Of a stretch of DNA of 61,169 bases, positions 10,473-46,500 are shown one piece after another. Below the pieces are notes generated by a model. That model did not search any database. It was not told the origin of the DNA and worked only from the letters and a program-made list of their open reading frames with translations. Location of the stretch: positions 1 to 61,169 of the IMG/VR virus record IMGVR_UViG_3300031227_000040; one strand, 5' to 3'. The translations under genes and the position numbers were made by a program. The stretch is from a virus. The stretch's first letter is position 1; the number at the start of each line of letters is the position of its first letter.

Positions 10473-10584
10473 TAACCAGCACGAGCCGGTATAACCAGCA
10501 CGAGCCGATATAACCAGCACGAGCCGATATAACCAGCACGAGCCGATATAACCAGCACGAGCCGATATAACCAGCACGAGCCGA
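10473..10584. repeat. Six tandem 19-bp iterons
   Basis: The unit TAACCAGCACGAGCCGATA occurs six times head to tail without spacers (starts at 10473, 10492, 10511, 10530, 10549, 10568; the first has GGTA in place of GATA and the last is cut after CCGA). The units are far more GC-rich than the window. They lie in a 440-bp gene-free stretch. Such arrays are typical of initiator-binding iterons or regulator-binding sites; simple slippage expansion is the alternative. Confidence 0.9.
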
Positions 10585-11661: not shown

Positions 11662-11856
11662 ATGCGTAATCGATTTTGGTCCTTATTACAAGACAAAAGG
11701 ACAGGCAGGCGCGCTAAAGCCGAGCTAATCCGTGGTGGATTCGGAAGTAATCCTTCAAGACGTTGTTATGCGGCTATTCTGTTCTTTACTATTTGTTTTT
11801 TGTTTGGATTGTATTTGATTGTTAGTGGTTTGATTGTGTTGTTAGGGCTGTGTTGA
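11662..11856 (+). CDS. Small membrane protein with basic N-terminus, 64 aa
   Basis: Residues 1-36 are strongly basic and soluble (RNRFW, DKRTGRRAKAEL, NPSRR) and residues 38-63 are a single long hydrophobic segment rich in Leu, Phe and Ile. By the positive-inside rule the basic part would lie in the cytoplasm. Its T/G-rich 3' end differs in composition from its neighbours. It could act on the host membrane (for example a holin-like or superinfection-exclusion peptide), but no family is recognised. Confidence 0.55.
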   Translation: MRNRFWSLLQDKRTGRRAKAELIRGGFGSNPSRRCYAAILFFTICFLFGLYLIVSGLIVLLGLC

Positions 11857-11916: not shown

Positions 11917-12025
11917 GGTTAAAAGTTTATTCCCTTAGGTGATGATAAGAAAAATAGGGGGAAATTTTTAGGATCGTGTTAGGAGAGAAGTAAAGGTCGT
12001 TAAACAAGCAAGTTAATTAATGCTT

Positions 12026-12193
12026 ATGAAAGATTTATCAAAGGAAGCAGAAGCAACTCTATGTGAAATGCTTGACTATCTTTGTTCAAAAGTAAATTTT
12101 GGTCAAGCAAACTTAGATGCTAAGGCTGTTCAAAGTATGAATATTCTTTTCATAGAACTTAAGAAAGATAAGAGGAAATTTGAGTTAACTTAG
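12026..12193 (+). CDS. Hypothetical helical protein, 55 aa
   Basis: ATG at 12026 (an in-frame ATG two codons earlier at 12020 is also possible) to TAG at 12191. It looks all-helical, with an acidic N-terminal helix (KEAEATLCEMLDYLC) and a basic C-terminal helix (ELKKDKRKFEL); two cysteines lie 8 residues apart. It follows GGAGAGAAG about 35 nt upstream, too far for a ribosome binding site. The hairpin array begins 27 nt after its stop. Function unknown. Confidence 0.55.
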   Translation: MKDLSKEAEATLCEMLDYLCSKVNFGQANLDAKAVQSMNILFIELKKDKRKFELT

Positions 12194-12219
12194 GTGTTTG
12201 AACAAGCGGATTGTCCGTA

Positions 12220-12276
12220 AAGATATTAAACAGCAAAATGCCGCTGTAAATCGGCATTCTTCCTGTTTAATATCTT
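12220..12276 (+). ncRNA. Hairpin 1 of a three-hairpin array
   Basis: Outer stem of 14 bp (AAGATATTAAACAG with CTGTTTAATATCTT), an asymmetric internal loop of CAA (12234-12236) opposite CTTC (12259-12262), then an inner 7-bp stem AATGCCG/CGGCATT closed by an 8-nt loop. There is no open frame across it. The internal loop and its flanking A-A-T/A-T-T pairs recur exactly in the next two hairpins while the stems differ. Confidence 0.75.
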
Positions 12277-12280
12277 AAAC

Positions 12281-12351
12281 GATTTTCAACAGCAAAATGT
12301 ACGACTGGAGTTGTAAACAACTCCTGAGGCACATTCTTCCTGTTGAAAATC
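12281..12351 (+). ncRNA. Hairpin 2 of the array
   Basis: Outer 12-bp stem GATTTTCAACAG/CTGTTGAAAATC, the same CAA (12293-12295) versus CTTC (12336-12339) internal loop, inner stem AATGT/ACATT, a larger internal loop, and an apical 7-bp stem GGAGTTG/CAACTCC with a TAAA loop. It starts 4 nt after hairpin 1. Confidence 0.75.
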
Positions 12352-12358
12352 TTAGTGC

Positions 12359-12461
12359 GACTTCAACCACAAAATATTCTTGGCATCGCGATATTTTATT
12401 CAGGAACTTACAGTTCCTAAAACAATATCGCAGGAGCCCGAATATTCTTCTGATTGAAGTC
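12359..12461 (+). ncRNA. Hairpin 3 of the array
   Basis: Outer 11-position stem GACTTCAACCA/TGATTGAAGTC with one C-A mismatch, the same CAA (12370-12372) versus CTTC (12447-12450) loop, then stacked stems AATATTC/GAATATT, GCGATATT/AATATCGC and AGGAACT/AGTTCCT with a 3-nt apical loop. The longest of the three; it starts 7 nt after hairpin 2 and ends 23 nt before the small gene coupled to rtcB. Confidence 0.75.
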
Positions 12462-12484
12462 TTAATTAGTTAACCTTAGATTGT

Positions 12485-12646
12485 ATGAAGAAAAAAGAAT
12501 TATTAAGCAGATTAAGTGACGTTATTACTGCTTATTCTAAGGATCATACCGACTCAGTGGATAAGGATGAAGAGAAAGAATTTACTAAGAATGTTCGAGC
12601 CTGTGAAGAAGTTGAGAGATACTTTAGAATATCTTATCCTGGATGA
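12485..12646 (+). CDS. Hypothetical protein coupled to rtcB, 53 aa
   Basis: ATG at 12485, TGA at 12644-12646 overlapping the rtcB ATG (ATGA), which implies coupled translation. The protein is acidic and helical (SRLSDVITAY, DEEKEFTKNVRACEEVERYF) and has no recognised domain. Because it lies between the hairpin array and rtcB and shares their transcript, a role with the RNA ligase is possible but only inferred. Confidence 0.6.
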   Translation: MKKKELLSRLSDVITAYSKDHTDSVDKDEEKEFTKNVRACEEVERYFRISYPG

Positions 12647-13839
12647 AAAAAGTAATATCAACAGAAAGGAACCCAATTAAATTGTGGACTGAAGACGTGG
12701 AAGATGGAGCCATGGTTCAATTAAAGAACCTGGCTAATCTGCCCTTCATCCACAAATGGGTCTGTGCTATGCCTGATTGTCATCAGGGTTATGGCATGCC
12801 TATTGGTGGAGTAATCGCCACTAGAAATGTCATCATTCCTAACGCAGTCGGCGTGGACATTGGCTGTGGAATGTGTGCTGTTAAAACCTCCTTAACAGAA
12901 ATAGATACTGAGACTCTTAAGAATATTATGGGGAAAATTAGAGAAGCTATCCCTGTCGGATTTGAACATTATGAAGAGAAACAAGACCAAAGTTTAATGC
13001 CAGAATATAGTAAAGATATGATTAATGGTGTTGTAGTTGCTGAATATAATAATGCTCAAACACAAATAGGAACTCTTGGTGGTGGTAATCATTTTATCGA
13101 GATTCAAAAAGGTTCTGACGGACATATTTGGATTATGATACATAGTGGTTCAAGGAATTTAGGATTTAAAGTTGCTAAACATTATAACGAAGTTGCTAAA
13201 AAATTAAATAAGCAATGGTTTAGTTCAGTTCCTGAAGATCAGGGCCTAGCATTCTTACCAATACAAAGTGATGAAGCTAAGGCTTACTTAAGAGAAATGA
13301 ATTATTGTATAGATTTTGCTTTGGCTAACAGAAAATTGATGATGAATAGAGTAATGGAAATCTTTATAGATAAAATAGATTATTCTTATAAAGGTGGAAC
13401 AGAAACTAAGACTGGATGTGTTGAATTTGAGCCAATGATAAACATCGCTCACAATTATGCTGCTTGGGAAAATCATTTTGGAAAGAATGTTTTAGTCCAT
13501 CGCAAAGGAGCTACGCTTGCCAGGAAAGGAACAATAGGAATTATTCCTGGAAGTCAGGGAACTAAGTCTTATATAGTTGAAGGACTTGGTAATCCAGATA
13601 GCTTTATGTCTTGTTCTCATGGAGCGGGAAGAAGAATGGGAAGAAAACAGGCCAAGAGAGAGCTAGATCTAAAAGCAGAGCAGGATAAGATGAAAGGTAT
13701 TCTTCATTCCGTTAGAGGAGTTGAGCAATTAGATGAAGCTCCCGGTGCTTATAAAGACATAAGTACGGTTATGGGAAATCAAAAGGATTTAGTGAAAGTT
13801 TTAGTCGAACTTTCCCCCTTAGCTGGTATTAAAGGCTAA
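12643..13839 (+). CDS. rtcB: RtcB-type RNA ligase, 398 aa
   Basis: RtcB joins RNA 2',3'-cyclic phosphate or 3'-phosphate ends to 5'-OH ends using GTP and Mn2+. Signatures are complete: MPDCHQGYGMPIGGV (about 42-56), VGVDIGCGM with the metal-binding Cys near residue 74, LGGGNHFIEI (about 144-153), HSGSRNLG (about 167-174) and SCSHGAGRRMGRKQA (about 323-337), containing the His that becomes guanylylated. Length is normal for bacterial RtcB. In phages such ligases repair tRNAs cut by host defence nucleases. It is translationally coupled to a 53-aa gene and preceded by three large hairpins. Confidence 0.93.
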   Translation: MKKVISTERNPIKLWTEDVEDGAMVQLKNLANLPFIHKWVCAMPDCHQGYGMPIGGVIATRNVIIPNAVGVDIGCGMCAVKTSLTEIDTETLKNIMGKIREAIPVGFEHYEEKQDQSLMPEYSKDMINGVVVAEYNNAQTQIGTLGGGNHFIEIQKGSDGHIWIMIHSGSRNLGFKVAKHYNEVAKKLNKQWFSSVPEDQGLAFLPIQSDEAKAYLREMNYCIDFALANRKLMMNRVMEIFIDKIDYSYKGGTETKTGCVEFEPMINIAHNYAAWENHFGKNVLVHRKGATLARKGTIGIIPGSQGTKSYIVEGLGNPDSFMSCSHGAGRRMGRKQAKRELDLKAEQDKMKGILHSVRGVEQLDEAPGAYKDISTVMGNQKDLVKVLVELSPLAGIKG

Positions 13840-13841
13840 TT

Positions 13842-14030
13842 ATGACCTATGAAGAAGAGATTAAAACATTAACTCTTAAACAATTAGAACACCAGATAAT
13901 AGGATCAGATAAAGGAGAAATGACATGTCATGGAATAAAAGATGTAAGAATGTTATCTGCTTGTTATAGAGAAGCTGCGAGTCGTGGTTTAAAGGTCTCT
14001 TGTAAGCTTCACTTAGTTAAAGATAATTAG
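13842..14030 (+). CDS. Hypothetical protein, 62 aa
   Basis: Starts 3 nt after the rtcB stop. Predicted helical N-terminal part (EEEIKTLTLKQLEHQI) followed by CHGIKDVRMLSACYREAASRGLKVSCKLHL, with three cysteines not arranged as a zinc site. Close spacing indicates co-expression with rtcB. No family recognised. Confidence 0.6.
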   Translation: MTYEEEIKTLTLKQLEHQIIGSDKGEMTCHGIKDVRMLSACYREAASRGLKVSCKLHLVKDN

Positions 14031-14039
14031 GAGAAAATT

Positions 14040-14477
14040 ATGAAATTGATGCAAAAGTATAAGAAAATGACGGATTTAATAGGTAAGAGTAATGAGTTAA
14101 AGTTGCCATTACTTAAAGAGTTAAATGGATACTTAAAAGATTTGAAGTTAGCATCTTTTTATTTATCCTTTAGTAGTACAATCGAAATAAAAGAAGTTGT
14201 TTTAGATCATGAAGGTCATCTTCTTAATAAAATGAAATGCTTAGTGGTTACTGAATATACTCATACAGAAGAAGGTAACAATTGCTTTATTATACCAAGC
14301 TTTGTTTTAACTGATAAGGATTATAAAACTAGATACTTTAATTTGATTAAGCAATGGAAGCAACAAGCTATTGATAATGATAAAGCTTTTAAGTTACAAC
14401 AGAAAGAGAACAAAAAATTGTATGATGAGAAAGAATACAAAAGATTAAAGAGGAAATTTGGAAGAGTGCTTAAATAA
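14040..14477 (+). CDS. Hypothetical basic protein, 145 aa
   Basis: One of the few genes with a Shine-Dalgarno sequence (AGGAG about 8 nt before ATG). The N-terminal third is helical and basic, the middle looks beta-rich (FYLSFSSTIEIKEVVL, MKCLVVTEYTH), and the C-terminus is a long lysine/glutamate-rich helix (about 105-145). No catalytic motif or cysteine pair. It overlaps nothing and is followed 8 nt later by a membrane gene. Function unknown. Confidence 0.55.
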   Translation: MKLMQKYKKMTDLIGKSNELKLPLLKELNGYLKDLKLASFYLSFSSTIEIKEVVLDHEGHLLNKMKCLVVTEYTHTEEGNNCFIIPSFVLTDKDYKTRYFNLIKQWKQQAIDNDKAFKLQQKENKKLYDEKEYKRLKRKFGRVLK

Positions 14478-14485
14478 GTTAATAA

Positions 14486-14689
14486 ATGTTTATGACTAAA
14501 ACAATAATGTTAGGATTGTTAGGATTGTTTCTAGTAATAGCAGGTGGATTACTTGCTGTTAGAAACTTAATTGTTATTCGTAATGCTACTGAATTTGGTT
14601 CGGTTGGATTGTTCTTAAGTCTCTTACCATTAATATTAATATTAATTGGATGGGGATTTACTATGTATTCAGAGCATAAAGGTCATTAA
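14486..14689 (+). CDS. Small membrane protein with two membrane segments, 67 aa
   Basis: Two hydrophobic segments (about residues 5-25 and 40-60) are separated by a short loop with RNLIVIRN. The C-terminus is short and charged (EHKGH). Such two-segment peptides in phages include holin-like proteins, but the pattern alone cannot decide that. It is one of three consecutive membrane-protein genes between 14486 and 15041. Confidence 0.55.
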   Translation: MFMTKTIMLGLLGLFLVIAGGLLAVRNLIVIRNATEFGSVGLFLSLLPLILILIGWGFTMYSEHKGH

Positions 14690-14712
14690 TTAAAAGAGTA
14701 ATAAATTTGGGA

Positions 14713-14793
14713 ATGATAATTGAAACTTGGATCTATTACTCCTGGCTCTTTGTGGGCCTAATGGTAATGATTATAACTAAAAAAGTGATATGA
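14713..14793 (+). CDS. Very small membrane peptide, 26 aa
   Basis: ATG at 14713 to TGA at 14791, which overlaps the next ATG (ATGA). The 26 residues are almost entirely one hydrophobic aromatic-rich segment ending in KK. The overlap with the next start and the membrane-protein context support it, but at this length it could be a translated leader rather than a functional protein. Confidence 0.4.
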   Translation: MIIETWIYYSWLFVGLMVMIITKKVI

Positions 14794-15041
14794 AAATTGA
14801 ACTTTATATTGCGTTAATATGTTTGTTCTTTCTCATATTAATGCACATCAGACGCATGTTCTATGTAAGCTACTTTAAAGTAAAGACTTGTGCTCTTCTT
14901 AAAGTAGCTAAGATAGATGAAAAAGAAAGAGAAACGTGTATAAAATTAATTAAAAACATGGAGATAAGTGCTTTAAAATTAATCAGTTATATAATATGGA
15001 CAAAACTACAACAAAGGAAATCGTCACACAAGACGAAGTAA
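14790..15041 (+). CDS. Membrane-anchored helical protein, 83 aa
   Basis: A hydrophobic N-terminal segment (about 4-19) followed by a basic stretch (HIRRMF) would anchor the protein in the inner membrane, with a long helical tail (KVAKIDEKERETCIKLIKN) in the cytoplasm. The last 46 nt overlap the next gene in another frame, an unusually long overlap that raises the possibility that one of the two starts is further downstream. Function unknown. Confidence 0.5.
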   Translation: MKIELYIALICLFFLILMHIRRMFYVSYFKVKTCALLKVAKIDEKERETCIKLIKNMEISALKLISYIIWTKLQQRKSSHKTK

Positions 15042-25733: not shown

Positions 25734-25768
25734 GCCCCGATTTAATTAGTCGGGGCTTGACTTTTTTT
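25734..25768 (+). terminator. Terminator closing the MoxR module
   Basis: GCCCCGA pairs with TCGGGGC over a 9-nt loop and is followed by TTGAC and a seven-T run. It stands 12 nt after the metallopeptidase stop. The same bases after the stem form the -35 box of the next promoter. Confidence 0.85.
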
Positions 25769-25785
25769 ATGCTATTAATTATACT
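25757..25785 (+). promoter_or_regulatory. Sigma70-type promoter for the virion module
   Basis: TTGACT (25757-25762), a 17-nt spacer and TATACT (25780-25785) give a near-consensus promoter. Transcription would begin about 8 nt later, leaving a very short leader before the ATG at 25806. It overlaps the preceding terminator's tail, a compact operon boundary. Confidence 0.8.
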
Positions 25786-25805
25786 ATATTTGATTGTTAC
25801 GTATC

Positions 25806-28026: not shown

Positions 28027-31000
28027 ATGGATACACAAAAGTTTTTAAAAGAGGTTAGTGCATCTAGGGAGATTCATGATAACTTCCTTAGTGCTACTGA
28101 AAAGAATTTATCGTATTTCTTTTGGGGAAAAGATCAGGAGATTGTAACTTTCAAAAAGGGTTTGTTTTCCTATGGGGATTTTATTAGTGCGATGGAATCT
28201 GTGGCCCCAAGTGCTTTTAATCCTAGTTTAATTCCTTTACAGATAATGTTTCAAGAGATGGGGAATTCTAAGATTAAAGTTCGTACAGCTCCTACTGGGG
28301 CTTTAACTAAAGTAGATGGAGCGTTTGAATTTGGGATTGAGTTATCTCAAAAGCTTACTAATATGTTTGAGAACTTTAGTCCTCATGGATTGACGGCCTT
28401 GTTTGAAATGATTAATCATTCTTACATGGTCTTTTATTTAGATGCAGGCCATGGGACAATACATTCATTAAGTTGTTCAGATTTTTATCCTGGAGATTCA
28501 GAGATCTCAGACTTACAATCACAACCATTTGTTGTTAGATTAACTAGTCCTCGTAAAGAATTATTACTAAGAAGTATTCCTAACTCTACTGATCCCAGAA
28601 TAAATTCCTCCGCTTATCATGATATTACTAAGCTATCTGAATTAACTGCAGTTCCTATTATAGATATCTGGAGTAAGGCAATTAATAAGAGAATCTTTAG
28701 CCTCCCTACTGGTGAGGTTTTATTTGAAGATGAAATGCCGGATGTAAAGACTTATCCTTTCTTTAAAGCTAGTGATAATCTTAGTCCTAATCGTTGGTAT
28801 ACTATGCCTATCATGTCAAAAATAAGACCGTTGCTTGAAAAATATAAGAAGGTTACAATGGCTATTGATCATGCAACTCATGCACAAGCTAGACCTTTGT
28901 TAGTTTATGATGAAGAAGCTTCTATTAATATTCCTAAACTTAAAGCTCAGTTGCAAGAGGGTGGTAAGAATATTCTAGTAGGTAAGAGTGAGATAGGTGA
29001 TATTCGTTACAAGCAACCCGGGCAGCTTCCAGAGTATGTCTTTGCTCATCAAGCAAATTTACTTGGTCAGATAAATCAATTACTAGGGATTGCTGGGATG
29101 GCTAGAGTTGGTGCAGTTAGAGAGAAGGGGGCCGTTGAAGCAATGATCCGCTCTTCTTTACGTCAGTTCATTTTCTATTCTAATCAGATTAGAGGAGCTA
29201 TAGTTAAGGCTAGTGATTACTATACTAGATATGTTCAGACTCATCGCCTACAATTTTTAAAAGAATTTAATGCTTTAAATTCCCCCTCTCCTTTATGGAC
29301 AGAGGGAGGTTATAAATCAGAAGTTGAGGTCTTACCTTCAGTAGCTTCTAGAACTTCAACTGAACAAGCTTTTATTTTGAGAAAGAATGATAAGGGACTT
29401 ATTTCTAAAGAACAAGCTCTTAGAGAATTAGGATATTCTAATCCTGATAGACAAAAGAAAGAATTAAATGAAGAGATATTAAGTCAAAAGAAATTAGCTG
29501 AAGAACTTAAGAGACCTTCACTTTCTTTACGTCAGGAAGTAGAACAGGTATTGGGTCCAGTATTAGGATACGTGCCAGATGTTCTTCTCTCTGGAGATTC
29601 TAAAGCAGTTGTTTCAGTTAATGAAAAGGATGTTGAGAAGTCACGTTTCTTATTAGGAGATATAAATGATAGAGTTTATATAGACGGATCAAGAGATCCA
29701 GAAACAAAGTCAGAAGAGGTAGAGTCTATGAGAGACAGAGTATCTGAACAACCTGCTCAACCGCCCATGGAAGCTAAGCAACCAACTGAGCAACCGGTTG
29801 AACAGCCAGCTGAACAGTTAGCTGAGCAGCCAGCCGAAGAACCAGTTGAGAAAGCTGAAACTACTAAGGAAGAAGCTCCTAAAGAAGCTGCTCCTAAGAT
29901 TAGTAAGTTTAAACAGATACTTGAAAAGTTAATTGAGATTTCTAAGGTTGGAATAAAGAAAGAAGCTGTAGGAAAGTTCATAAGTAAGTATCCTGGAATT
30001 TATTTAGCAGACCCAGCAGGTAATGATATCTATAGTGGGAAGAAATTAATGATAGTTAAGTCTAGGTTATTTGATATTATAGATAAGCCTCATATTTTAT
30101 TAGGGGGGAAGTTTGCCTATGGTGTTATAGTGCCACGTCTCCAGTTTAAAATGGATAAGAAAAGATTTCTAGAATTAGAGAAGTATCATTTAATATCTGA
30201 TAAACAGAGAAAGGAATGGTGGGACAATAAACCTTTACATGGATATTTATTTGAATTTCATAAGTTTGAGGAACCAGTAGAATGGGAACGCAAGCCTGGG
30301 GTTAAGAACTTTGTCAAAGCTCCAATTCCTTTGCGAACTGAGCACCTTGGTGTTCCGTATACGGGGGATTTAAAACCAATGAACTTAACTCCTTTTAAGA
30401 TTCCGCCTCCTGCAAAGCCAGAGAAGAAAGCTTTCCAGCCCTATGAAATATTTTCCCCCACTAGATTAAAAGATGTTATTCCAGTAGGAACTTATAATGT
30501 ATCAGAGAAGATAGATGGCATTAGAACTTTCTGTTGGAAGGTGGGAGATAAGGTCAAGTTCTTCACGGATACAGGAAACGAAATTAATGCTGCTAAACTT
30601 ACATTAGTAGCTGACTCAGTACGTAGTCTCTTTAAAACTCAGGATGTTTTATTAGATGGTGAGTTAGGAATGAAGGGGGCCAAACATGAGAGTGTTACAG
30701 GATTTGTGAGTAAGACTAGTCCGACTCCCGAAGAAAAAGCTGCCGTTGAATATATTACTTGGGATATTCTTTACTTGAATGGTAAGTCTTTAGCAGATAA
30801 ACCTTTCATAGATCGTTATAGATTACTTAATCTTAAGATTAAACCTGGACAAGCTAAGGGGAAAATTAGAAGAGTTAAAACAACTAATGCTTCTAGGGAC
30901 CAATTAGCTAAAGCAACTAAGACAGTAACTTCTCCAGAAGGCGTAGTCATTAGAGATATTGATGCAGCTTACTGGGCAACTCATGCAATGTACAAGATGA

Positions 31001-31407
31001 AGAAGACTGCTGACTTAGATGTTAAGATTATTCATGTAGAAAAAACTAAGAATAATCTCCCTGTCTTTCACTGTGCCTTAAGGGATGGAACTTATATGGG
31101 CCAAACCTATGCTCAGGGCGAAGTTAAAGCGATTAGAGGGGATGTTATTCGTGTGATGGTAGATCATTTTACAATTAGACCTGATGGTTCTATAGGGTGG
31201 TTTGCTCCACGTCCTAAAAATATTAAGTCTCCAGGCGCAGCATCTCTTAAACAGAAAGGTATTGGGAGTCCTGATACAATAGCATTTGTTAAGGAACATT
31301 ATCTCAGTCATTCTGGTACAGAGGAAGCTTGGAATAAATGGTTCCCAGCATTTAAAGCTTGGAGAATAGGTCCGATGAAAAAAATAATTAGTAAGTTAAA
31401 AGAATAA
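28027..31407 (+). CDS. Portal protein fused to an ATP-dependent DNA ligase, 1126 aa
   Basis: Residues 1 to about 520 look like a portal: long helical body, EKGAVEAMIRSSLRQFIFYS region and the C-terminal GLISKEQALRELGYSNPDR typical of portal proteins. A Pro/Glu/Gln-rich linker (about 572-630) follows, then an unassigned domain (about 640-790), then a full nucleotidyltransferase ligase domain: motif I EKIDGIR with the adenylated Lys near 828, motif III DGELG near 877, IIIa YITWDILY near 909, IV EGVVIR near 971 and V YKMKK near 989, plus an OB-like C-terminus. One uninterrupted frame; it directly follows terL. The ligase would be displayed on or near the portal ring. Confidence 0.85.
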   Translation: MDTQKFLKEVSASREIHDNFLSATEKNLSYFFWGKDQEIVTFKKGLFSYGDFISAMESVAPSAFNPSLIPLQIMFQEMGNSKIKVRTAPTGALTKVDGAFEFGIELSQKLTNMFENFSPHGLTALFEMINHSYMVFYLDAGHGTIHSLSCSDFYPGDSEISDLQSQPFVVRLTSPRKELLLRSIPNSTDPRINSSAYHDITKLSELTAVPIIDIWSKAINKRIFSLPTGEVLFEDEMPDVKTYPFFKASDNLSPNRWYTMPIMSKIRPLLEKYKKVTMAIDHATHAQARPLLVYDEEASINIPKLKAQLQEGGKNILVGKSEIGDIRYKQPGQLPEYVFAHQANLLGQINQLLGIAGMARVGAVREKGAVEAMIRSSLRQFIFYSNQIRGAIVKASDYYTRYVQTHRLQFLKEFNALNSPSPLWTEGGYKSEVEVLPSVASRTSTEQAFILRKNDKGLISKEQALRELGYSNPDRQKKELNEEILSQKKLAEELKRPSLSLRQEVEQVLGPVLGYVPDVLLSGDSKAVVSVNEKDVEKSRFLLGDINDRVYIDGSRDPETKSEEVESMRDRVSEQPAQPPMEAKQPTEQPVEQPAEQLAEQPAEEPVEKAETTKEEAPKEAAPKISKFKQILEKLIEISKVGIKKEAVGKFISKYPGIYLADPAGNDIYSGKKLMIVKSRLFDIIDKPHILLGGKFAYGVIVPRLQFKMDKKRFLELEKYHLISDKQRKEWWDNKPLHGYLFEFHKFEEPVEWERKPGVKNFVKAPIPLRTEHLGVPYTGDLKPMNLTPFKIPPPAKPEKKAFQPYEIFSPTRLKDVIPVGTYNVSEKIDGIRTFCWKVGDKVKFFTDTGNEINAAKLTLVADSVRSLFKTQDVLLDGELGMKGAKHESVTGFVSKTSPTPEEKAAVEYITWDILYLNGKSLADKPFIDRYRLLNLKIKPGQAKGKIRRVKTTNASRDQLAKATKTVTSPEGVVIRDIDAAYWATHAMYKMKKTADLDVKIIHVEKTKNNLPVFHCALRDGTYMGQTYAQGEVKAIRGDVIRVMVDHFTIRPDGSIGWFAPRPKNIKSPGAASLKQKGIGSPDTIAFVKEHYLSHSGTEEAWNKWFPAFKAWRIGPMKKIISKLKE

Positions 31408-32377: not shown

Positions 32378-32661
32378 ACAAAGAAATCTTTCAGTTAACT
32401 ATGATTAGTCGTAGACTTTCTACCTTAAAAGGAAATAAAGGCAAGGTTTTTCTAGTAGGGGGAATGATTACGAATGGTCGGTCCGTTAGAGACATTGATA
32501 TTTTAGTTCAGAAGAAAGAAGATATTCCTTTAGTTAAAAAAGCAATGGGTCCATTTAGTAAGGATGTTCATTACTCAGTTGATAAAGGAAGCAGACCTAG
32601 TTCTAGATCTTACTTAACAATAGAACCAAAGAGTTTACCAGAAGTTAATAAGATCTTCTAA
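32374..32661 (+). CDS. Minimal nucleotidyltransferase-like protein, 95 aa
   Basis: VFLVGGMITNGRSVRDIDIL at about residues 25-44 matches the pol-beta-type nucleotidyltransferase signature: a strand, GG, then D-x-D nine residues later. The rest is a short helical/strand tail, so this is a minimal catalytic domain like MNT-type or nucleotide-adding proteins. The third acidic residue is not clear. It is embedded between the portal-ligase and the LigD-phosphoesterase-like gene and shares stop/start overlaps. Substrate unknown; DNA-end, RNA-end or protein targets are all possible. Confidence 0.6.
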   Translation: MNKEIFQLTMISRRLSTLKGNKGKVFLVGGMITNGRSVRDIDILVQKKEDIPLVKKAMGPFSKDVHYSVDKGSRPSSRSYLTIEPKSLPEVNKIF

Positions 32662-33554
32662 TGAAAATAGATACAGAAAAAGTTAAGGGGAAATCTTATA
32701 AGGTTTATAAAGGAACTAAGATTCCTACTAAGGCAGAATTTTTAAGACGGGCTTTAAAGAAAGCTAAAGATTTAGACGTACATGAGAAGTGGATTGACTT
32801 CATTCCGGCTACCTTTACACTTCAATTACATGGTTGGTTTGATGAAGGAAGTTATGGAAAAGGCAAACAGGCCTTGACAAAAATAATATCTATTGTTAAG
32901 ATATCTTTAAAGAATCATGAAGACCCAATTCTTAACCTAAAGTATGGAAAGTTTCATTATGATTTACGAATAAAAAAGAAAGGTTCAGTTACATGGTTTG
33001 GTTTAACTACCTTTCGATTACCTTGGACCGGGACCCCTGAAGATAAAGTAATGGGAACTGTCAAAGGTTATCAAGCTCTAGTTAAGGGGTCTGAAAAATT
33101 AAATAAGTTTTTAAGAACAAAAGCAGAAGAAGCTTTAACTACTCAAGGAACCTCCGAACGTAGAGATCGTCCAAAGTGGATGAAGATTAAAGCAGAGTTC
33201 TGGAATCCTCCTGGACTAGGAACTCCTACTGGACAGCCTGGTGTAATGATAGCAATCGAATATTTAAAACCATGTGTTGTTCATAGAAGAGAATTAGATT
33301 TTCTGGATGCAACATTTATAGGAGAATTTTTTAAGGGAAGATATTACGATAGGCTAGTTGAAAGGAAATTAGAAAAAGGTTTTGGTTTAGGATTCTATTT
33401 TTGGAGAGCGAAACGTGCATGGAGTTTAGCAGCCATGGAGAAAATTGCTAAGGGTCAGACTAAGAAAGAATCAGTAGAAGTAAAGACTCAAGATGAAACT
33501 AATGAAATACAAATCTCCCTTAAGCCTAAATGGAAATATAAAAGTTCGAAATAA
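32661..33554 (+). CDS. LigD-type 3'-phosphoesterase-like protein, 297 aa
   Basis: FHYDLRIKKKGSVTWFGL (about residues 98-115) resembles the core of the LigD 3'-phosphoesterase domain, H-Y-D-L-R-L followed by G-V-x-x-S-W. Upstream FTLQLHG (about 52-58) resembles that family's F-V-V-Q-x-H strand carrying the other catalytic His, but here about 40 extra residues separate the two. C-terminal WNPPGLGTPTGQPGVMIAIE and aromatic regions are not part of the known domain. If active it would trim 3' phosphates or ribonucleotides before ligation. Similarity is local and unverified. Confidence 0.5.
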   Translation: MKIDTEKVKGKSYKVYKGTKIPTKAEFLRRALKKAKDLDVHEKWIDFIPATFTLQLHGWFDEGSYGKGKQALTKIISIVKISLKNHEDPILNLKYGKFHYDLRIKKKGSVTWFGLTTFRLPWTGTPEDKVMGTVKGYQALVKGSEKLNKFLRTKAEEALTTQGTSERRDRPKWMKIKAEFWNPPGLGTPTGQPGVMIAIEYLKPCVVHRRELDFLDATFIGEFFKGRYYDRLVERKLEKGFGLGFYFWRAKRAWSLAAMEKIAKGQTKKESVEVKTQDETNEIQISLKPKWKYKSSK

Positions 33555-36851: not shown

Positions 36852-37534
36852 TGAGAGGCGCGTATGAAATCCTAATCTATATTGATGAAGATAGATATCC
36901 TGTAAGGAAGATGATTCAAACTTTTAAGAGTATACGTTACTTTCTTTCAAAGGGTAGAGCTCCTAAACATTTTAGATCATGGGGATTTCCATCAGTCTCA
37001 ATCTTGTTTAAGAATCCTAGTACTAAGAGGTTCATGAACATAAGAATGTATTACAAGTTTTATCCATGGTGGACTAGGATTTATTTTGGGGTTACTCCTT
37101 CTGAGTTCTTAAAGAATCGATTAGTAAGTCCACATACAAAAGCACTTTTAATTATACAAGCTCCTATAAAGTTTGGAGCGACTAATCAAGCTAGTCTTAT
37201 TAGATCAGCAAGATTCTTTGCCTCTGTAGTTTATCCTTTATATTCTAAGCAATGGAAATCTGCGGTAGCTAAGTATCCTGGGTTATTAGCTGTTCATAAT
37301 AAGACAAGGATTAGTGAGGGGGATTTTCAAACAGTTGGGAAAAGACTTAGTAAAGTCTGTCCATATTTCCAATCTGATTTCCGGAAATTATTTCCGAAAA
37401 AGAACTGGAAATGTTTTGCAATAAGAAGAAAAGGTTTGCATAATTTACAACATTATCCTGATGGCAGGATCGGGCCATCAGATAAGAATATAAGATTCAG
37501 AGTGTTACTTGATAATTTATATGACTCTTTATAA
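36851..37534 (+). CDS. Hypothetical basic protein, 227 aa
   Basis: Basic and aromatic, with MRMYYKFYPWWTRIYFG-like content around 65-85 and APIKFGATNQASLIRSARFF near 103-122. Possible minor head or tail-completion protein from its position between capsid and the giant gene; no family recognised. Palindrome copy 3 lies in its coding sequence at 37379-37397. The end overlaps the next gene by 14 nt. Confidence 0.5.
   Translation: MRGAYEILIYIDEDRYPVRKMIQTFKSIRYFLSKGRAPKHFRSWGFPSVSILFKNPSTKRFMNIRMYYKFYPWWTRIYFGVTPSEFLKNRLVSPHTKALLIIQAPIKFGATNQASLIRSARFFASVVYPLYSKQWKSAVAKYPGLLAVHNKTRISEGDFQTVGKRLSKVCPYFQSDFRKLFPKKNWKCFAIRRKGLHNLQHYPDGRIGPSDKNIRFRVLLDNLYDSL
37379..37397. repeat. Palindrome copy 3, inside a gene
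   Basis: The same 19 nt as at 5460-5478 (TTCCGGAAATTATTTCCGA), with the 15-bp core at 37382-37396, within codons near the C-terminus of the preceding gene and about 125 nt before the giant gene starts. Confidence 0.65.
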
Positions 37535-40500
37535 TCTATTTAAACAGCAAAGTTTACAACTCCCATCAGTATCAGAACGTAAGAAACTATATTCAGGATA
37601 TAAGCTGGGAGAGGATTATGTAGGTTCAGCTGAACAAAATATTAACTTAACCAAAGCTATTGAAAAAGATGTGCGAGCTTTTGATTCTTTTGTTAAGTCA
37701 TTAAAAACTCCTAAGGCTGTTGAGCCTAAGGAAGATATATTTAAAAAGGAACCGGTATTAGAAAGATCAGATCCTTTTGAGACAAGAGAATTAACTGTTG
37801 GTAAGACAGTTGGTGATTGGTTAAAGGAAAATAAAATAGAGTTTGAGGACTTTCAAAAGTTAAATCCAGCGTATAAGACACCGGATTTTAAGGTTGAGAG
37901 TCCTTTTAAAGTTAGAGTTGTTAAAGCTCCTAAGTTTTTAAAGGATTATCCTGAGCTAACAAATAGAACTGGGATGTCTATTGCACCAATTAAAATGATA
38001 AAGGAACCTTCTGAACTAGAGAAGATGATAAAGCAGACAATCCCTAATCTTTTAAAGGAAGGTATTAGAAAAATTCCTAAGCTTTTTGTTGGAGATAAAA
38101 ATATCTTTCCTCAGATAACTAGTGAGATAGCTAAAGGAATAAAGCAAACTAAAGAATTCTATAAGCAAAAAGATATTGAAAAGAAACTAGCTGATAAAAG
38201 TAAAGCTAAAAGTATTAGTTGGAATCCTAAGTCTATTTTAAAGTCTTTAATTTTACTTACTCAACCGGTAGCTCTTATAGAAAGAAGAGCAGATAAGAAA
38301 AAAGTTGAACTAGAAAAGAAAGAAGTTCAAACTTTAATTCCTACTATTAAAGATATTATAAGTGGAGACTCAAAGGTAGATATTAGTCGTAAAGAACAAT
38401 TAATACTGATTCAACCTAAAGAAGATAATCTTGGAGTCGAAGGAAATGCTGCTAGGTTAAAGAGATCTTTAAAAGAAACTGCTGACTTAAAGGAGGATTT
38501 TCTCCAAAAGAATATCACCTTAGTTTCTAGAGGAGATGAGATCACTGGGTTTACAGATGAGAAAGGAAAATATGAAGACTTCTATGAGTTAGATAAAGAT
38601 GTTAAAGAAGCAGAAGCGATGAAGGTAGAGGTAGAAGCACTTACTCAAAAGATAGGAGGGAATACTGCTAAGCTTCAGACTAACTCCGATGAATCTCTTA
38701 AGTGGCAAACTGAAATGTTTAACAATCTTGAGGAACGAACTGAAGTTATCTTCAGTATTATTTCAGATCCTGATATAATTAAAGACCCTTCCTTACTTGC
38801 TAAAATCTTTTCAATTTTCCCCTCACGTTCTAGCTTCATGTTAGGAGTTACTAAGGCCCCCGAAGAAACATTAATTCAAACTCCAGAGGTTAAAGAACTT
38901 ATCTCTGAGCTGGAAGGATTATATACTGAAAGAATGAAAGAGATTTTAGATGTTGCTTCTAGTGTCCAAGCTGGAGATGAAGCTGCTTCCACAAAATTCT
39001 GGGAGGGTCTTACAGAAAAGGAAATGGAAAATCTTGAAAGAGTAATGACTCTCAATAGATTGATTGGAGAGAAGGATGATTCAACTAAGATCCAAAAGAC
39101 ATGGGAACTAATGGAAGATCCTTATTTTCAGAAAGCCCTTTTAGATAGTTATGAATATCTTTCTGAAGAACAGAAAAAATTCTTAAAGCCTATAGTTGAA
39201 GTAGCTAGGTTAAATGCTGAGAGAGTTATTTTATGGCCACTAGTAAATAAAGAACTAGAATCTCAATCAGAAGAAGTAAAGAATTTGATAACTGAATATC
39301 AAAGTTTAATTGATAGTATTAATAGAAGGGTTGTAGTTCTTGGAGATCCTTCAGTCTCTGGGACTCTTGCTCATAATCTAGTTGAACTTAGTGAGACTGG
39401 TCAAGATTATTATAGAAGTATAAAACTATCTGAATTAAAGAGTGAAGCTGATAGATCAGAATTTCTAGAGACCTATGAGAGAGCTAGAACTTTTAAATCT
39501 ATGGCTAAAGCTAGAATGAATTTTCTACTTGGCCTTGGGAAAAAAACTGAGTGGCAACCTTGGAAAGCTTATAAGCAATCTTTATTCCCTGGAGGTTTTC
39601 AAACTTACTTAAGAGAAGGTGGAATTGGAATGGATCTTCCTCGCATAGTTAGTATCCCAATTTATCATGCTGCTAAATTTGGTTGGAAGACAATGATAAA
39701 AATGTGGGATACTGGTTTAGCTGCTGTCAGTACAGGAATTATAGCTGCTTTAGATATTACTTCTTCAGGATTCAAAGCTATTATAGAGAACCTTGGAGCT
39801 TTGTATGGGTATGAAGAGAAAGATGTTATTAATCAAACTACATTAGGGGAGTATCCATTTAAGGAAGATAATTTTCTTAGTAAGATGTGGAATGTTGCTT
39901 CTTTTAATGTATTCAATTTACCTGATGCTTCTAGATATAGTGATATCAAATCTATCCCAGTTGGAGAAAGATTTCTTCCTGAGAATATAGGTAAGTGGGT
40001 TGATTTTAAAAGAGGTGGATATATTCCACAAGTTTTTGCTTCTCAATATCATCCTCGTGCTTATGAAAAAAAGTTGATTGTTGAAACTTCTAAACCATTT
40101 GATCATCTTCCTAAAGAATTTATGGGAGTAAGAGAGGAATTTTTACAGTTAAATGGTTTAACTGAAAATTCAGTTTTAAAAATGGGACAAAGAATTATGG
40201 TTCCTACAGAGGCTTTTGTTTCTCCACGTAATTTACTTGATCCTAAGTTAGTAAACAAATTAGAGCAATCTCTTAATGGTAGATTAAGTTTGTTAGCTTT
40301 TGATTTTCTTGGATGGGTTAAGTTAGATCCACTTACAGTTTTTTGGAGTGGTATTGGTTCCACTTCTAAATCGATAATGAAACATATTTCCCCTAAGTAT
40401 GCTAAGCAATTAAAGACTAGGAAGGATCTGTTAGCTTTTTCTAAACAGTATTCTAAGTCTACTGATATCGCTGAGGATTTAGCTAGCTTTATTACAGGAG

Positions 40501-43500
40501 ATGCTGTAGCAGAAGGATTTTTAAAGGCAACCTTCCCGGGAATGATAGAAGCCAGAAAAGCTTTAACCAGCGTTAGAGTTCTTGATAATTTAGATCCACG
40601 AATTTTAAACCAAATAGAAAAGCTTTCACAAAAAGGAGAACTTTGGAGAAGTGGATTCTTCTCTAAGACTTTTCTTGATGATGTAAAAGGTAAGATTGGA
40701 AAAGAAAAGTTTAAAGTTTTTAAAGAAGGTTTAGAAGGATTAATGTTAAAAGGTAAACTTCCTGAAGCTACTAATAATATTGTATGGGAAGTGTTGAATC
40801 AATATGGTGGTGATGGATTTAAAATGATACAGAAAATAATTAAGGGTACTCCAAAAACATTTACAAATGAATTAGGGAAATTAGTAAAGAGTTATCACAC
40901 TGCTGAGATGAGACAATACGTACTACGTAAAAATTTAGATGATGCTTTAAAAGGATTAGCTCCATCTGAAAGAAATGCTGTATTAACTCTTTCTCAAAAA
41001 ACTCCTGCTCAAATTACATTAGAGCTTTCTCGAATGAAAAAGCTTGGAAAAGGAATCTCTTTTAAGGGTAAGTTATTTCAGAGAGCTGAGTTTAATAGTA
41101 AATCAATTGAGAAAATTAAAAGGGCTGTTGCTGAAACTAAAAAGAATCTATCTGAGATTGAGAGTATAATCTTAAAAGGTGACTCTATTATTAAATTACC
41201 AAATGGAAGTAAGATTGTATTTAAATTTAAGGATGGGGGAAAGAACTATTATGATCCGATCAGTAAAGTTTTTGTAATTGAGAAGCCAGGAAACATGGGA
41301 GTTAGTGGAGTCCTTAATGATTTCTATAGTCAGGTTGGAAAACAAGCAACTAAATATTTAGATAATACTACTGCTTATTTCTCTGAGTCAACTCTTTTAA
41401 AAAGATATTACCTCTCTTATGAAGATATTGTAAAGGAGATTAAGAATGGGAATATTGGACTAGGCCATAGATTAACTGATACTCTAGTTAAGTTTAATGG
41501 TGAGGAAATAAAGCTAAAGAAATTCCTAGCAGAAATTAAACAATTAGCTAAAGAAGAGCCTGGTCTTCCTTTTAAAGAGAGAGCATGGAAAAAGATTAGT
41601 AAGAATTTACCCAATGAGGGGAGCTTTTCATCTAAGAAATGGAGTTTTGAAATTCCAGTTAATACTAAAAATTCCTCCTCAGTAGTTGAAGCGATGTTAA
41701 AACATATTAAGTTTGATGTTCTAACCAATAATAAATGGGAAGGAATGAGTGGGAGTGAGTTTAGAACTATGTTAGAAAAAGTTGCTAAGATAGATAATGC
41801 TTTCATTCCTACTACTGTAAGTAAAACAGTTTATACTACTCTTCCTTTTCAGTATGGACAAGCTAGTAAGGCTCTTAAGGGCTATTCAGCCTGGGGAGAG
41901 ATGCCAACTAGGCAAGCCATGCAGAAACTTTTAAAGGAAGAATCTAAAAAGATAATCAAGGTTACTGATCCTAAAGACTTTAGAGCTTATTTTGAAGAGG
42001 CTATGAGTCTATACTTTATGAAGAAGTATGATCCTACATCTTATGTTAAATATAAGAGTGATATTTTTCAGATGTTTGAGAATCTTACTCCTCAAAAATT
42101 AAATCAGTATTTAAATTCTCATCAAAAGATTGCTTTAATGATCTTTAATAATGAGAAGAAAGGTATTCAATCTTTACCCCCTTCACTTATTTCTTTATTA
42201 GAAAAGTTTACTGGCAATGCTGATGATGTTAAGAATGCATTAACTAAGTTTTTAAAAGGAAGAATAGAGGCTGAGAAGATTCAGATATTAAAAGCTGAAA
42301 AGATTAGAAAGTTAAATGATTTTAGAGTTGGTAAGATAAGGAATCCAGAAGCTGAATGGCAACTATATAAAAAGAAGTGGTCCCTTGACCTAGCAATTAA
42401 TCCTAAGAGTGAAGAATTTTCTGTTCTCCATGATATTTTAAAAGAAGCTCCTATCTTGAATTTTAAAAAGACTCCTTATTTAGTTCCTAAGAAATGGATT
42501 ACTAGAGCTGAAGATAATTACTACTTAAGAAGAGGGAGATCTGTTGCTGAACATGAAGCTTTATTCTTAGATATTCAACAAGGTGGAAGACAAAAGCTTG
42601 CTCAAATCTTATCTAAGAAGATTCCAAAGACAAAAAGAATTGTAATCATGGAAGATTTAAGTAAGTCTATTAAGAATGTTAAAGCTCAAACCTATACGTA
42701 TTTACCTTCTAATACTAGAAAAGAAATAGATAAAGAAGTTGAAAGAATAGTTTCTAAACTTGGAAGAGAAGGTTACTTCGTGATTCCAGAAAGTCATAAG
42801 CTGTCTAAGTATGCTTATAATAAGATGTCTGAAGTTTTGCCTCCTGGCAAAGTAAGCTTACTTAAAAGACATGGAGCAGGGAAAGATAGATTTGCAATGA
42901 GTGAAGCTAAGGCCGTTAATACACTAAAGGAACTAGGTCAGTATGAAAATTATACAATGTGGGGGGCAATTTCTGAGAAAGATATTTTTGAATTCTGGAG
43001 CAGAGTTCCTGAATATATTCCTAGGTTTAAATACTATCATGGTACAGGTAAAAAGTTTACTGCTCCTATTGAAGGAATGAAAACAAAGGGAACCTTTACC
43101 TGGATGCCTGATCTCAGAGCAAAGAATTTAGATTTCAGAAGAGAGATACTTCCTTTTATAAAAAAGAGAAAGAATACAAATGCTAAGTTATTGGCAGAAT
43201 TTATTTCTTCTCCTACTGGAGCTGTAGATGATCTTTCTGTTTCTGCAATTGCTCAAGCTGTAGAAGTCTTAGAAAATAAGAAAAGAATTTTAAATGGAAT
43301 TTTCGACTCTAAGAGTTTCTATATTCAAAAATCTAAGAGTGGAAAGAAACTAATAAACTTTAAAGGAAAAGGAAAACTTGATGATCTAGACTTGGATTCT
43401 ATTATCTATTTTTCAAATGGTAAGACTGTTGGGAATATTTCTGATTCAATTAGGAAGAGAGCAAAGAAGTTTATCTATGAACAGAAGTATTTAGATAGAT

Positions 43501-46500
43501 TAGATGATGCGCAGTGGCCGGCCAACTTAACTCTTGGAGATGTGAGAGCTGATTTACGTCAAGCATTTAATCTACATAAGTATTCTGATAGAGATCAATT
43601 TGCAAAAGTCTTTAAAGAAGTTTTAAATTCTAAGGGGAAAAATGATTCAGCTATCAAGAAGTTAATACGACAAATGAAACTAGACGATCTTATTGAGCTC
43701 CCAAAGATGGAAAGAGATTTCTATGTTCTTATGTCTGATTTAAATGAAGCAGCTCAACGTGGAAATTTTCTTTCAGTATTAAGAAGTGAAGCGGATGATG
43801 CTTATAATAATTTAAATAATTTAAAAGTTGCTTTAAAAAGATTAAAGAAACTAGATAAGCAAGGTAATAAATATATCTATTCAGTTAAGCATCCTAGTAT
43901 TGAGGGAGAAACAGCAACTATAATGAAAGCTTATTTTGATAAAGGTACCGGGACTTTAAAGAAGATAGAGAAAGAACTTCCAAAAACTGGAGGCTTGAAT
44001 AATTTTTCAAATAAGTTTATTGCTTCTAAGATTGAACTTAAGAAGGTTGAAGGTTCAGTCCAGGTTAAAGTTAAAGATGCAATAACAAAATTAAAAAGTA
44101 ACATAACTTCATTAGAAGAATATGTTCCTAGAGTTGAGAGTATGAATAAAGTCTTTAGTATGTTTGATTTTGATTCATTTAAAATTAGAAACGTAGATGA
44201 TTTCATAGATGCTATCTGGGATATTTCTAGAAGTACTCCTTCTGAGAAAGCTCTTGCTTTAATTGGTGATTGGCGTGGTAAAGGAATTAAGAAGGCTCAG
44301 GGGGCTGGTAGGCTTGAATACAAGCACGTAGATGTTGAAAAGGTTAAGTTAGTTGATGCTAAGATCAAACCTTTACTTACAAAAGATGTTACTAAATTTA
44401 TAGAACTTCATCAAATTACTGCTCCTAAGTTTATAATAACAGATAAAAGTACTCAGGTTTCCTTAGACATATTAAAATCATTAAAAGAAGTTAAAGCAGA
44501 TTTAGTTATCTTTGTTGATTTAAAAGTACCTAAGAATGTTCTGGATAAAATAAAAAGAAAAGCTATTATTGATTCTTCTAAATTCTTTCCTGCTAAGTCT
44601 TTAATAGCAAATAAAGAAGAGGTTGCTCTAGCTAGAAGAGTTCGTGATGCTTTTTATAAGAACCAACGTGTAGTAATTATAGGGGGAAAAGCTAAGAAGG
44701 TTAAAGAGAGATTGATAGATTTATTCCCCCCTGTAGAAGCTGAAGCTTATAAGGGACTCTTTCATATAGATAGAATGCCTAAGATAAGAAAGAAAAAATA
44801 TCCTGGTCCAACATATTTAAAAAGAAAAGGAAAGACTCCAATTCAAACAGGAATGGATAAGGAGGCTAAAGAGATTTATTCAAAAACTATTCCTTCTAAA
44901 TCATTAGCTGATTGGGATAATTACTTAAAGAAACCTTCAGTACCACGTTTGGTTGAAGAAATTCCTGCAGAAAGAACCAGGAGAATAACTGATATTATTT
45001 TAGATAAGCTAGAAGATTCAATAGAACAGTCTCCTGATTTTAAAGAGTTCTGGATTAAGAAAGTAAAGAGGGTAATAGGTTCTAAAGTAAAACAAGTTAA
45101 AGTAAAGTTACCTGAGATTATAAACTTTAATGATGTTGAGAATCTTAAGTTGTTAGATGATGCTGGTATTAAATTATATGTTGCTAAGACTGATACTCTA
45201 AGGATGGAATCTCTCTTACAGTTAAAGAAAGAAAAGATTTCAATTAGACTGATTTCAGAAGCTGATGCTCTTAAGTTAAAGTATTCTTATGCTAAAGGAG
45301 TTACTGGGAAAACTGAACTTTATGAACGTCTTGATTTCTTTAAGAGGAAAATTCATTCAGAGATTAAATCAGATGTTAGAAATTTCTTTAAAGAGTATAA
45401 GAAAATAATTCCATTCTCCACTGTGAGTATGGGAGATCTTAGAAAGAATACTTATGAATGGCTAACTTCTGTTTATAAAAGTAAGGGGAATAAAGCATTA
45501 ATTAAAGAGTGGAAAGAAACTGCAGTTAAGATGAGAAAGACTTATGAGGAACAGTTACGTGCAATTATCATTAAAGAGTTTGGTACTCTAAATAATAAAG
45601 CAGCAAGACATATCTTTACTAGAAAGCTATCAAAGTTTGATGAGCTAATTAAAATGGCAGAGGAGTTAAAGCTTGGGTTTGGTGCTCCAACTAAAATAGG
45701 ATTTGTTTCATTAATCTCAAAGCTTAGAGCCGGACTTAGTACAGCTTTTAATTGGATAATTAAAAAGTCTGAAGGCCCTCTTTCTTTAGGAGAAGAGGGA
45801 ATGTTGTATACTATAAAAGGATTAGACATGGGACTTAAAGCAACAGGACAGGTTGTTAGTGGTTCATTTAGAGCATTAAGAACCTTTTGGATATGGAATG
45901 TATTGTTCTTAAGACCGGCTTGGCATATAAATAATCAATTGGGAGATACTCTTCGTGGGACTATGGTTTCTAAACAAGTTCGTTATATGATGGATTCGTT
46001 TAGGACTTATGGATTAATTTCTGCCTCCTATCTTTCTTTCTTAGGCAGAGATATTAAATCTTTAGTCTGGCCATTGTATAGATATTTCCTTCCAGCTAAG
46101 GTAAGAAAGTATATTAAGGTTACAGATCCATTAGTTAAGACTAAAAAACAAATACTTAAACAGTTAAACTTAACTCTTAGACCTAATACAGCTAAGAATA
46201 CTTATGCTTTAAAGAAGATTTTAAGTCAGTATGAAGTTACATTTAACCCTAGGACTATTAAATTGATGAATACTAAGGGCCCTCAGGGATGGACTTCTAA
46301 GAAACTCTTTAAAGATATGACCAGTCCTAAGTACTGGCAAAGAAATTATAAGATTCCTATGTCTACTGTTAATCAAAGTACTCATATGGGTTTGCTTACT
46401 GCTTTAGAAGATCCTATATTAGGAGCTAAGATGTGGAAGTTAATGAAAGAAACTGGGATTGGAAGTGCCTTAAGAAAGCGTGGAGCTTTAATGAAACTTG

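What the first reader, a model, noticed from the sequence alone, without database searches (positions are those of the whole stretch)
12194..12484. Three-hairpin array with an invariant CAA/CTTC internal loop beside rtcB
Seen: three consecutive long hairpins (12220-12276, 12281-12351, 12359-12461), separated by only 4-7 nt, in a stretch with no gene. Stem sequences differ completely, yet pairing is kept by compensating bases. In each, the same asymmetric internal loop (CAA on the 5' arm, CTTC on the 3' arm) occurs at the same depth and is closed by the same A-A-T / A-T-T pairs. Constant unpaired bases amid changing stems is the signature of a structured RNA recognised by a protein or forming a fixed 3D motif. 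The immediate downstream gene pair is a 53-aa gene coupled to an RNA ligase. Inference: a phage noncoding RNA, RNA substrate/sponge, or leader controlling rtcB. I do not recognise it as a known RNA family.
Basis: partly seen in the sequence, partly recalled or inferred. Interest (0 to 1): 0.85.

Follow-up and report, generated by a model that had tools for sequence, protein, structure and literature searches.

The report
Three tandem hairpins in phage genome
An uncultivated bacterial virus carries three side-by-side, related RNA-type hairpins in a gap between genes, each with the same small flaw in its stem; the structure is real and looks selected, but it was found nowhere else we could look, and nothing ties it specifically to the RNA-ligase gene nearby.

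Summary
The array is real. Three adjacent hairpins (12220-12276, 12281-12351, 12359-12461) form the strongest local fold of the window (z -9.8 on +, -13.7 on -). Each carries the same defect 11-14 bp above its base. On + this is a C.C mismatch, two A-U pairs and a bulged C; on - it is a GA/G loop beside an invariant G.U pair. Correction: the stems are not unrelated. They are diverged tandem copies, and 8 of 23 pairs differ with compensation, so pairing was probably kept by selection. No Rfam family matches, and no relative turned up in IMG/VR, GTDB, phage, plasmid or E. coli searches (exact-motif or BLAST, so limited). The closest relative phage (head protein 78%, RtcB 70-73%) has rtcB elsewhere, no array, and lacks the 2.8-kb accessory block carrying the array here. 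None of 12 other viral rtcB loci has it, so the rtcB link is positional only. Best guess: a lineage-specific cis-acting structured spacer in a polycistronic phage transcript, working like intergenic RNase III processing or mRNA-stabilising hairpins. Antisense RNA, DNA palindromes and put-like antitermination remain open.

The parts
12220..12276 (.). Hairpin 1: 14-bp basal stem 12220-12233/12263-12276; defect C12234 x C12262, A-U pairs 12235-12236/12260-12261, bulged C12259; apical stem; 8-nt loop
12281..12351 (.). Hairpin 2: 12-bp basal stem 12281-12292/12340-12351; defect C12293 x C12339, bulged C12336; longer apical part with a second internal loop and a 7-bp terminal stem
12359..12461 (.). 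Hairpin 3: 11-bp basal stem 12359-12369/12451-12461 (C12367 x A12453 on +, which is a G.U on -); defect C12370 x C12450, bulged C12447; long three-part apical arm
12204..12219 (.). Small hairpin (CGGA-TTG-TCCG) just before hairpin 1; weak, possibly unrelated
12183..12478 (+). Possible outer closing stem: GAGTTAACTTAGG region (overlaps the stop codon of the 57-aa ORF) with TTAGTTAACC (leader of the 53-aa ORF)
   Evidence: MFE folds; no comparative support
12020..12193 (+). 57-aa ORF upstream, no relative found
12485..12646 (+). 53-aa ORF downstream, overlapping rtcB by 4 nt, no relative found
12643..13839 (+). rtcB, RNA-splicing ligase (Pfam RtcB, E 1e-114)
12010..14789 (+). Accessory block (57-aa ORF, array, 53-aa ORF, rtcB, three more small ORFs) absent from the equivalent site of the closest relative phage G001, where the flanking leader and the next gene are adjacent
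   Evidence: the exact left edge is approximate

Best explanation
A lineage-specific, cis-acting structured intergenic spacer in a polycistronic phage transcript. A hairpin of about two helical turns (23 pairs in hairpin 1) with a fixed defect was duplicated in tandem twice. Pairing and the defect were kept by selection while the sequences drifted. Shown: the folds, the copies, the compensated changes, the invariant defect, the position between same-strand genes, and absence from the relatives examined. Inferred: it is transcribed with the genes on +; the dsRNA hairpins are cut at or near the defect by host RNase III (as at phage T7 intergenic processing sites), or simply cap and stabilise the ends, so that the upstream 57-aa gene and the downstream 53-aa/rtcB genes become separate mRNA pieces with their own stability. 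The link to RtcB is only that rtcB is in the downstream cistron.
For: Extreme folding. Eight compensated pairs between copies, 0 of 500 shuffles reaching the observed values, signal lost when partners are slid. The ORFs read as genes around the array are on + and no strong terminator lies between 12.0 and 14.8 kb. Hairpin 1 has 23 pairs, about two helical turns, with a central defect; a T7 RNase III substrate, R1.1, is cut at one bond into 47- and 13-nt pieces (PMC4858673). The surrounding block is an accessory insertion, a plausible setting for a module with its own spacer.
Against: The minus strand folds better and holds 7 wobbles against 1, which is unexpected if + is the functional RNA. 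RNase III would not be expected to need the same defect sequence in three tandem copies. No related phage shows the element. The host, its RNase III and all transcripts are unknown.
Confidence: 0.35

Rival explanations
1. A separate antisense (minus-strand) noncoding RNA: three tandem hairpins, each showing a GA/G internal loop next to an invariant A-U/G.U step, that binds a protein (host or phage) as a sponge or decoy.
For: Better fold on - (z -13.7 against -9.8); G.U pairs 7 on -, 1 on +; G.U at the defect invariant in all copies while other pairs change.
Against: Three of the wobbles are one shared ancestral motif, so only about 5 against 1 independent events, not significant. No convincing minus promoter (best 9/12 at 12607-12579, number of sites not above chance) and only weak minus terminator-like sites. 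No minus-strand genes were recognised nearby.
Confidence: 0.22
2. DNA-level palindromes: tandem copies of an imperfect inverted repeat acting as single-stranded DNA or cruciform hairpins (replication, packaging, recombination site, or remnant of a hairpin-type mobile repeat such as REP elements).
For: Compensated pairing is equally expected for DNA hairpins; the copies sit in an accessory block missing from the relative.
Against: Only one array in the genome and no copies found in viral, bacterial, phage or plasmid collections, unlike a mobile repeat; G.T wobbles mostly on one strand would be unexplained; no transposase, relaxase or integrase was recognised next to it.
Confidence: 0.2
3. A put-like antitermination RNA: nascent hairpins with bulges bind RNA polymerase and carry it through downstream terminators.
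For: HK022 put RNAs are about 70 nt, two bulged stem-loops near the start of early operons (PMC9378689); the array lies 0.2-0.4 kb after a conserved leader.
Against: The relative phage runs the same downstream gene order without the array; few terminator-like sites downstream until 25.7 kb; three hairpins rather than two and no match in Rfam scans.
Confidence: 0.1
4. Leader or substrate specific to RtcB (riboswitch-like control of rtcB, or RNA ligated by RtcB).
For: Adjacency: the array ends 182 nt before the rtcB start.
Against: No array at rtcB of G001 or of 12 other viral rtcB loci; a 53-aa gene lies between; no self-cleaving ribozyme family found.
Confidence: 0.06

Closest known systems
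Phage T7 intergenic RNase III processing sites (R1.1 type)
   Same: Intergenic dsRNA hairpin of about two turns between phage genes, with a defect inside the stem (defect in R1.1: own knowledge; single cut into 47 and 13 nt: PMC4858673).
   Different: Three tandem copies with a fixed defect sequence; no cleavage shown; host unknown; wobble bias to the opposite strand.
HK022 put antitermination RNAs
   Same: Adjacent stem-loops with bulges in a phage transcript (about 70 nt in all for put, PMC9378689).
   Different: Three hairpins over 242 nt, no match in Rfam scans, relative phage does without it.
REP/BIME and other imperfect palindromic repeats (own knowledge)
   Same: Imperfect palindrome with a conserved mismatch, clustered copies.
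   Different: Single cluster, no dispersed copies, no associated transposase recognised nearby.

Membership tests
Any Rfam 15 family | Score above the family gathering threshold | tested here: not met
   Only a tRNA in the whole window; best sub-threshold matches at the array are miRNA models far below cut-off
RNase III processing site (T7 R-type) | Double-stranded hairpin of about 20 or more bp between genes of one transcript, with an internal defect | tested here: met
   Hairpins of 23, 29 and 42 pairs on - (23, 28, 39 on +) with defect, between same-strand ORFs; that they share one transcript is inferred
RNase III processing site (T7 R-type) | Cleavage by RNase III at a fixed bond | not testable with these tools
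   needs enzyme assay or end-mapping
put antitermination RNA | Suppresses downstream terminators through RNA polymerase | not testable with these tools
   needs a reporter assay
put antitermination RNA | Two bulged stem-loops of about 70 nt total | tested here: not met
   Three hairpins, 242 nt; put geometry from PMC9378689
Dispersed palindromic repeat (REP/BIME-like) | Many copies scattered in the genome or its relatives | tested here: not met
   Covariance model finds only the three hairpins in the window with significance and none in relatives
rtcB leader | Conserved with rtcB across relatives | tested here: not met
   Absent at 13 other viral rtcB loci

The most novel reading that the evidence does not exclude
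A new phage-encoded noncoding RNA, transcribed antisense to the operon, made of tandem hairpins that each display the same GA/G plus G.U recognition motif, and that titrates or inhibits a host RNA-binding protein or nuclease.
Probability: 0.12. Interest if true: 0.65.

Novelty: new variant of a known kind. Interest (0 to 1): 0.37.

Why it matters
If it is a processing or stability element, it is one more example of phages punctuating mRNAs with hairpins, here with an unusual tandem design. If it proves to be a protein-binding hairpin array, it would be a compact new phage decoy RNA found from structure alone, without sequence relatives. The three copies define a testable minimal motif.

Tried and rejected
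One L026 hit scored with the model (E 0.005) but has only a 6-bp outer stem and reads as ordinary coding sequence by eye. Covariance model R1 on 395 genomes of the Pedobacter phylum and 398 of the Ruminococcus phylum: three weak hits, about what chance gives at E 0.01, with several broken pairs. BLASTN against phages, plasmids, E. coli: nothing relevant. TerL as single query found no relative; the major head protein found G001. CsrA sponge considered: hairpins 1 and 2 have ACAGGAAG on -, but in the stem, and hairpin 3 lacks GGA there, so rejected. attC-like recombination sites considered: R-box consensus not met by eye, no cassettes. Fold-back amplification artefact rejected: it would give perfect inverted repeats, not a shared defect and compensated differences.

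Full report
OBSERVATION. The window is a 61-kb IMG/VR virus record, with phage terminase and head proteins. Between a 57-aa ORF (ends 12193) and a 53-aa ORF (starts 12485, overlapping rtcB by 4 nt) lie three hairpins at the stated coordinates. The region folds at -104.5 kcal/mol on + (z -9.8) and -128.3 on - (z -13.7), with 0 of 100 shuffles as good on either. In a scan of the window and its relatives the array gives the most negative score of the window (-5.5 on -). Single stems of 11 or more pairs are at the chance level (3 found against 3.5 expected), but two within 10 nt never occurred in 100 shuffled windows.

ANATOMY. On + each hairpin has a C.C mismatch, two A-U pairs, then a bulged C, 11 to 14 bp above the base. 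On - the same place is a GA/G internal loop followed by A-U, G.U, A-U. Aligned on the minus strand, the three are diverged copies: the arms align, 12 of 23 pairs never vary, 8 changed on both sides, 95.6% of cells pair, no shuffle of 500 reaches these values, and sliding partners by one to three columns destroys the signal. The alignment used arms joined by an artificial TTTT loop, because the apical parts differ in length. The G.U pair at the defect is invariant. The shared sequence is simplest read as descent by tandem duplication, with pairing kept by selection.

STRAND. Predicted G.U pairs number 7 on - and 1 on + in the three hairpins. Three of the seven are the shared motif, so the bias is suggestive only. 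The ORFs read as genes around the array are on +, no convincing minus promoter is seen, and promoter-like matches are no more common than in shuffles.

RELATIVES. No Rfam match. BLASTN of the array against phages, plasmids and E. coli gave nothing relevant. The closest relative found, G001 (IMGVR_UViG_3300033145_002388), shares head protein (78%), TerL (72%), RtcB (70-73%) and collinear structural genes, but its rtcB sits behind a homologue of the window's 17405-17725 gene and it has no array. At the window's position G001 has the homologue of ORF 11662-11856, a similar leader, and directly the homologue of ORF 14790-15041 (32% identity, E 1e-10 in a two-sequence comparison): about 2.8 kb, array and rtcB included, is an accessory block here. 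Twelve further viral rtcB loci and two more relatives (L205, L206) have no such structure. The 57- and 53-aa ORFs have no relatives found.

MECHANISM. Shown: structure, duplication, compensation, fixed defect, position, absence from relatives examined. Inferred: transcription and function. The plainest reading is a cis-acting intergenic RNA spacer in a polycistronic mRNA, working like RNase III processing sites or stabilising hairpins; R1.1 of T7 is cut at a single bond into 47- and 13-nt products (PMC4858673). Rivals are an antisense RNA with a protein-binding motif, DNA palindromes, and a put-like antiterminator (HK022 put: about 70 nt, two bulged stem-loops near early promoters, PMC9378689). 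An RtcB-specific role has only adjacency behind it.

VERDICT. A genuine structured element without known family, private to this lineage as far as can be seen. Moderate interest; the strand question and any transcript evidence would decide most of it.

Noticed in passing
window 28027-31407: 1126-aa protein just after the terminase gene, in the usual portal position, carries an ATP-dependent DNA ligase domain near its C-terminus (aa about 821-1009; Pfam DNA_ligase_A_M 7e-18, phrog_114 8.5e-21). Possible structural protein-ligase fusion; G001 and L205 have homologues. The neighbour 32661-33554 contains FHYDLRI, resembling a LigD phosphoesterase motif (by eye).
   Followed up: partly
window 10473-10584: Six tandem copies of a 19-bp unit TAACCAGCACGAGCCGATA (98% matches) in an intergenic stretch; G001 has other short repeats at a similar place.
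   Followed up: no
window 10697, 10961, 11571: Repeated intergenic element GTACGAAYGAGAA, two copies just after terminators; G001 and L205 show related TACGTAY elements. Perhaps a promoter or start-region element.
   Followed up: partly
window 25735-25800: Strong terminator directly overlapping a sigma70-like promoter (TTGACT-17-TATACT) before the terminase region; similar arrangement in G001 and L205.
   Followed up: partly
window 37509-51026: Single ORF of 4505 aa, about 22% of the record, conserved in G001 (43-51% identity).
   Followed up: no
window, before many ATG codons: Leader motif like TTAATTAACTAACTAA precedes several start codons here and in L032, with little sign of Shine-Dalgarno sequences; by eye only.
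   Followed up: no
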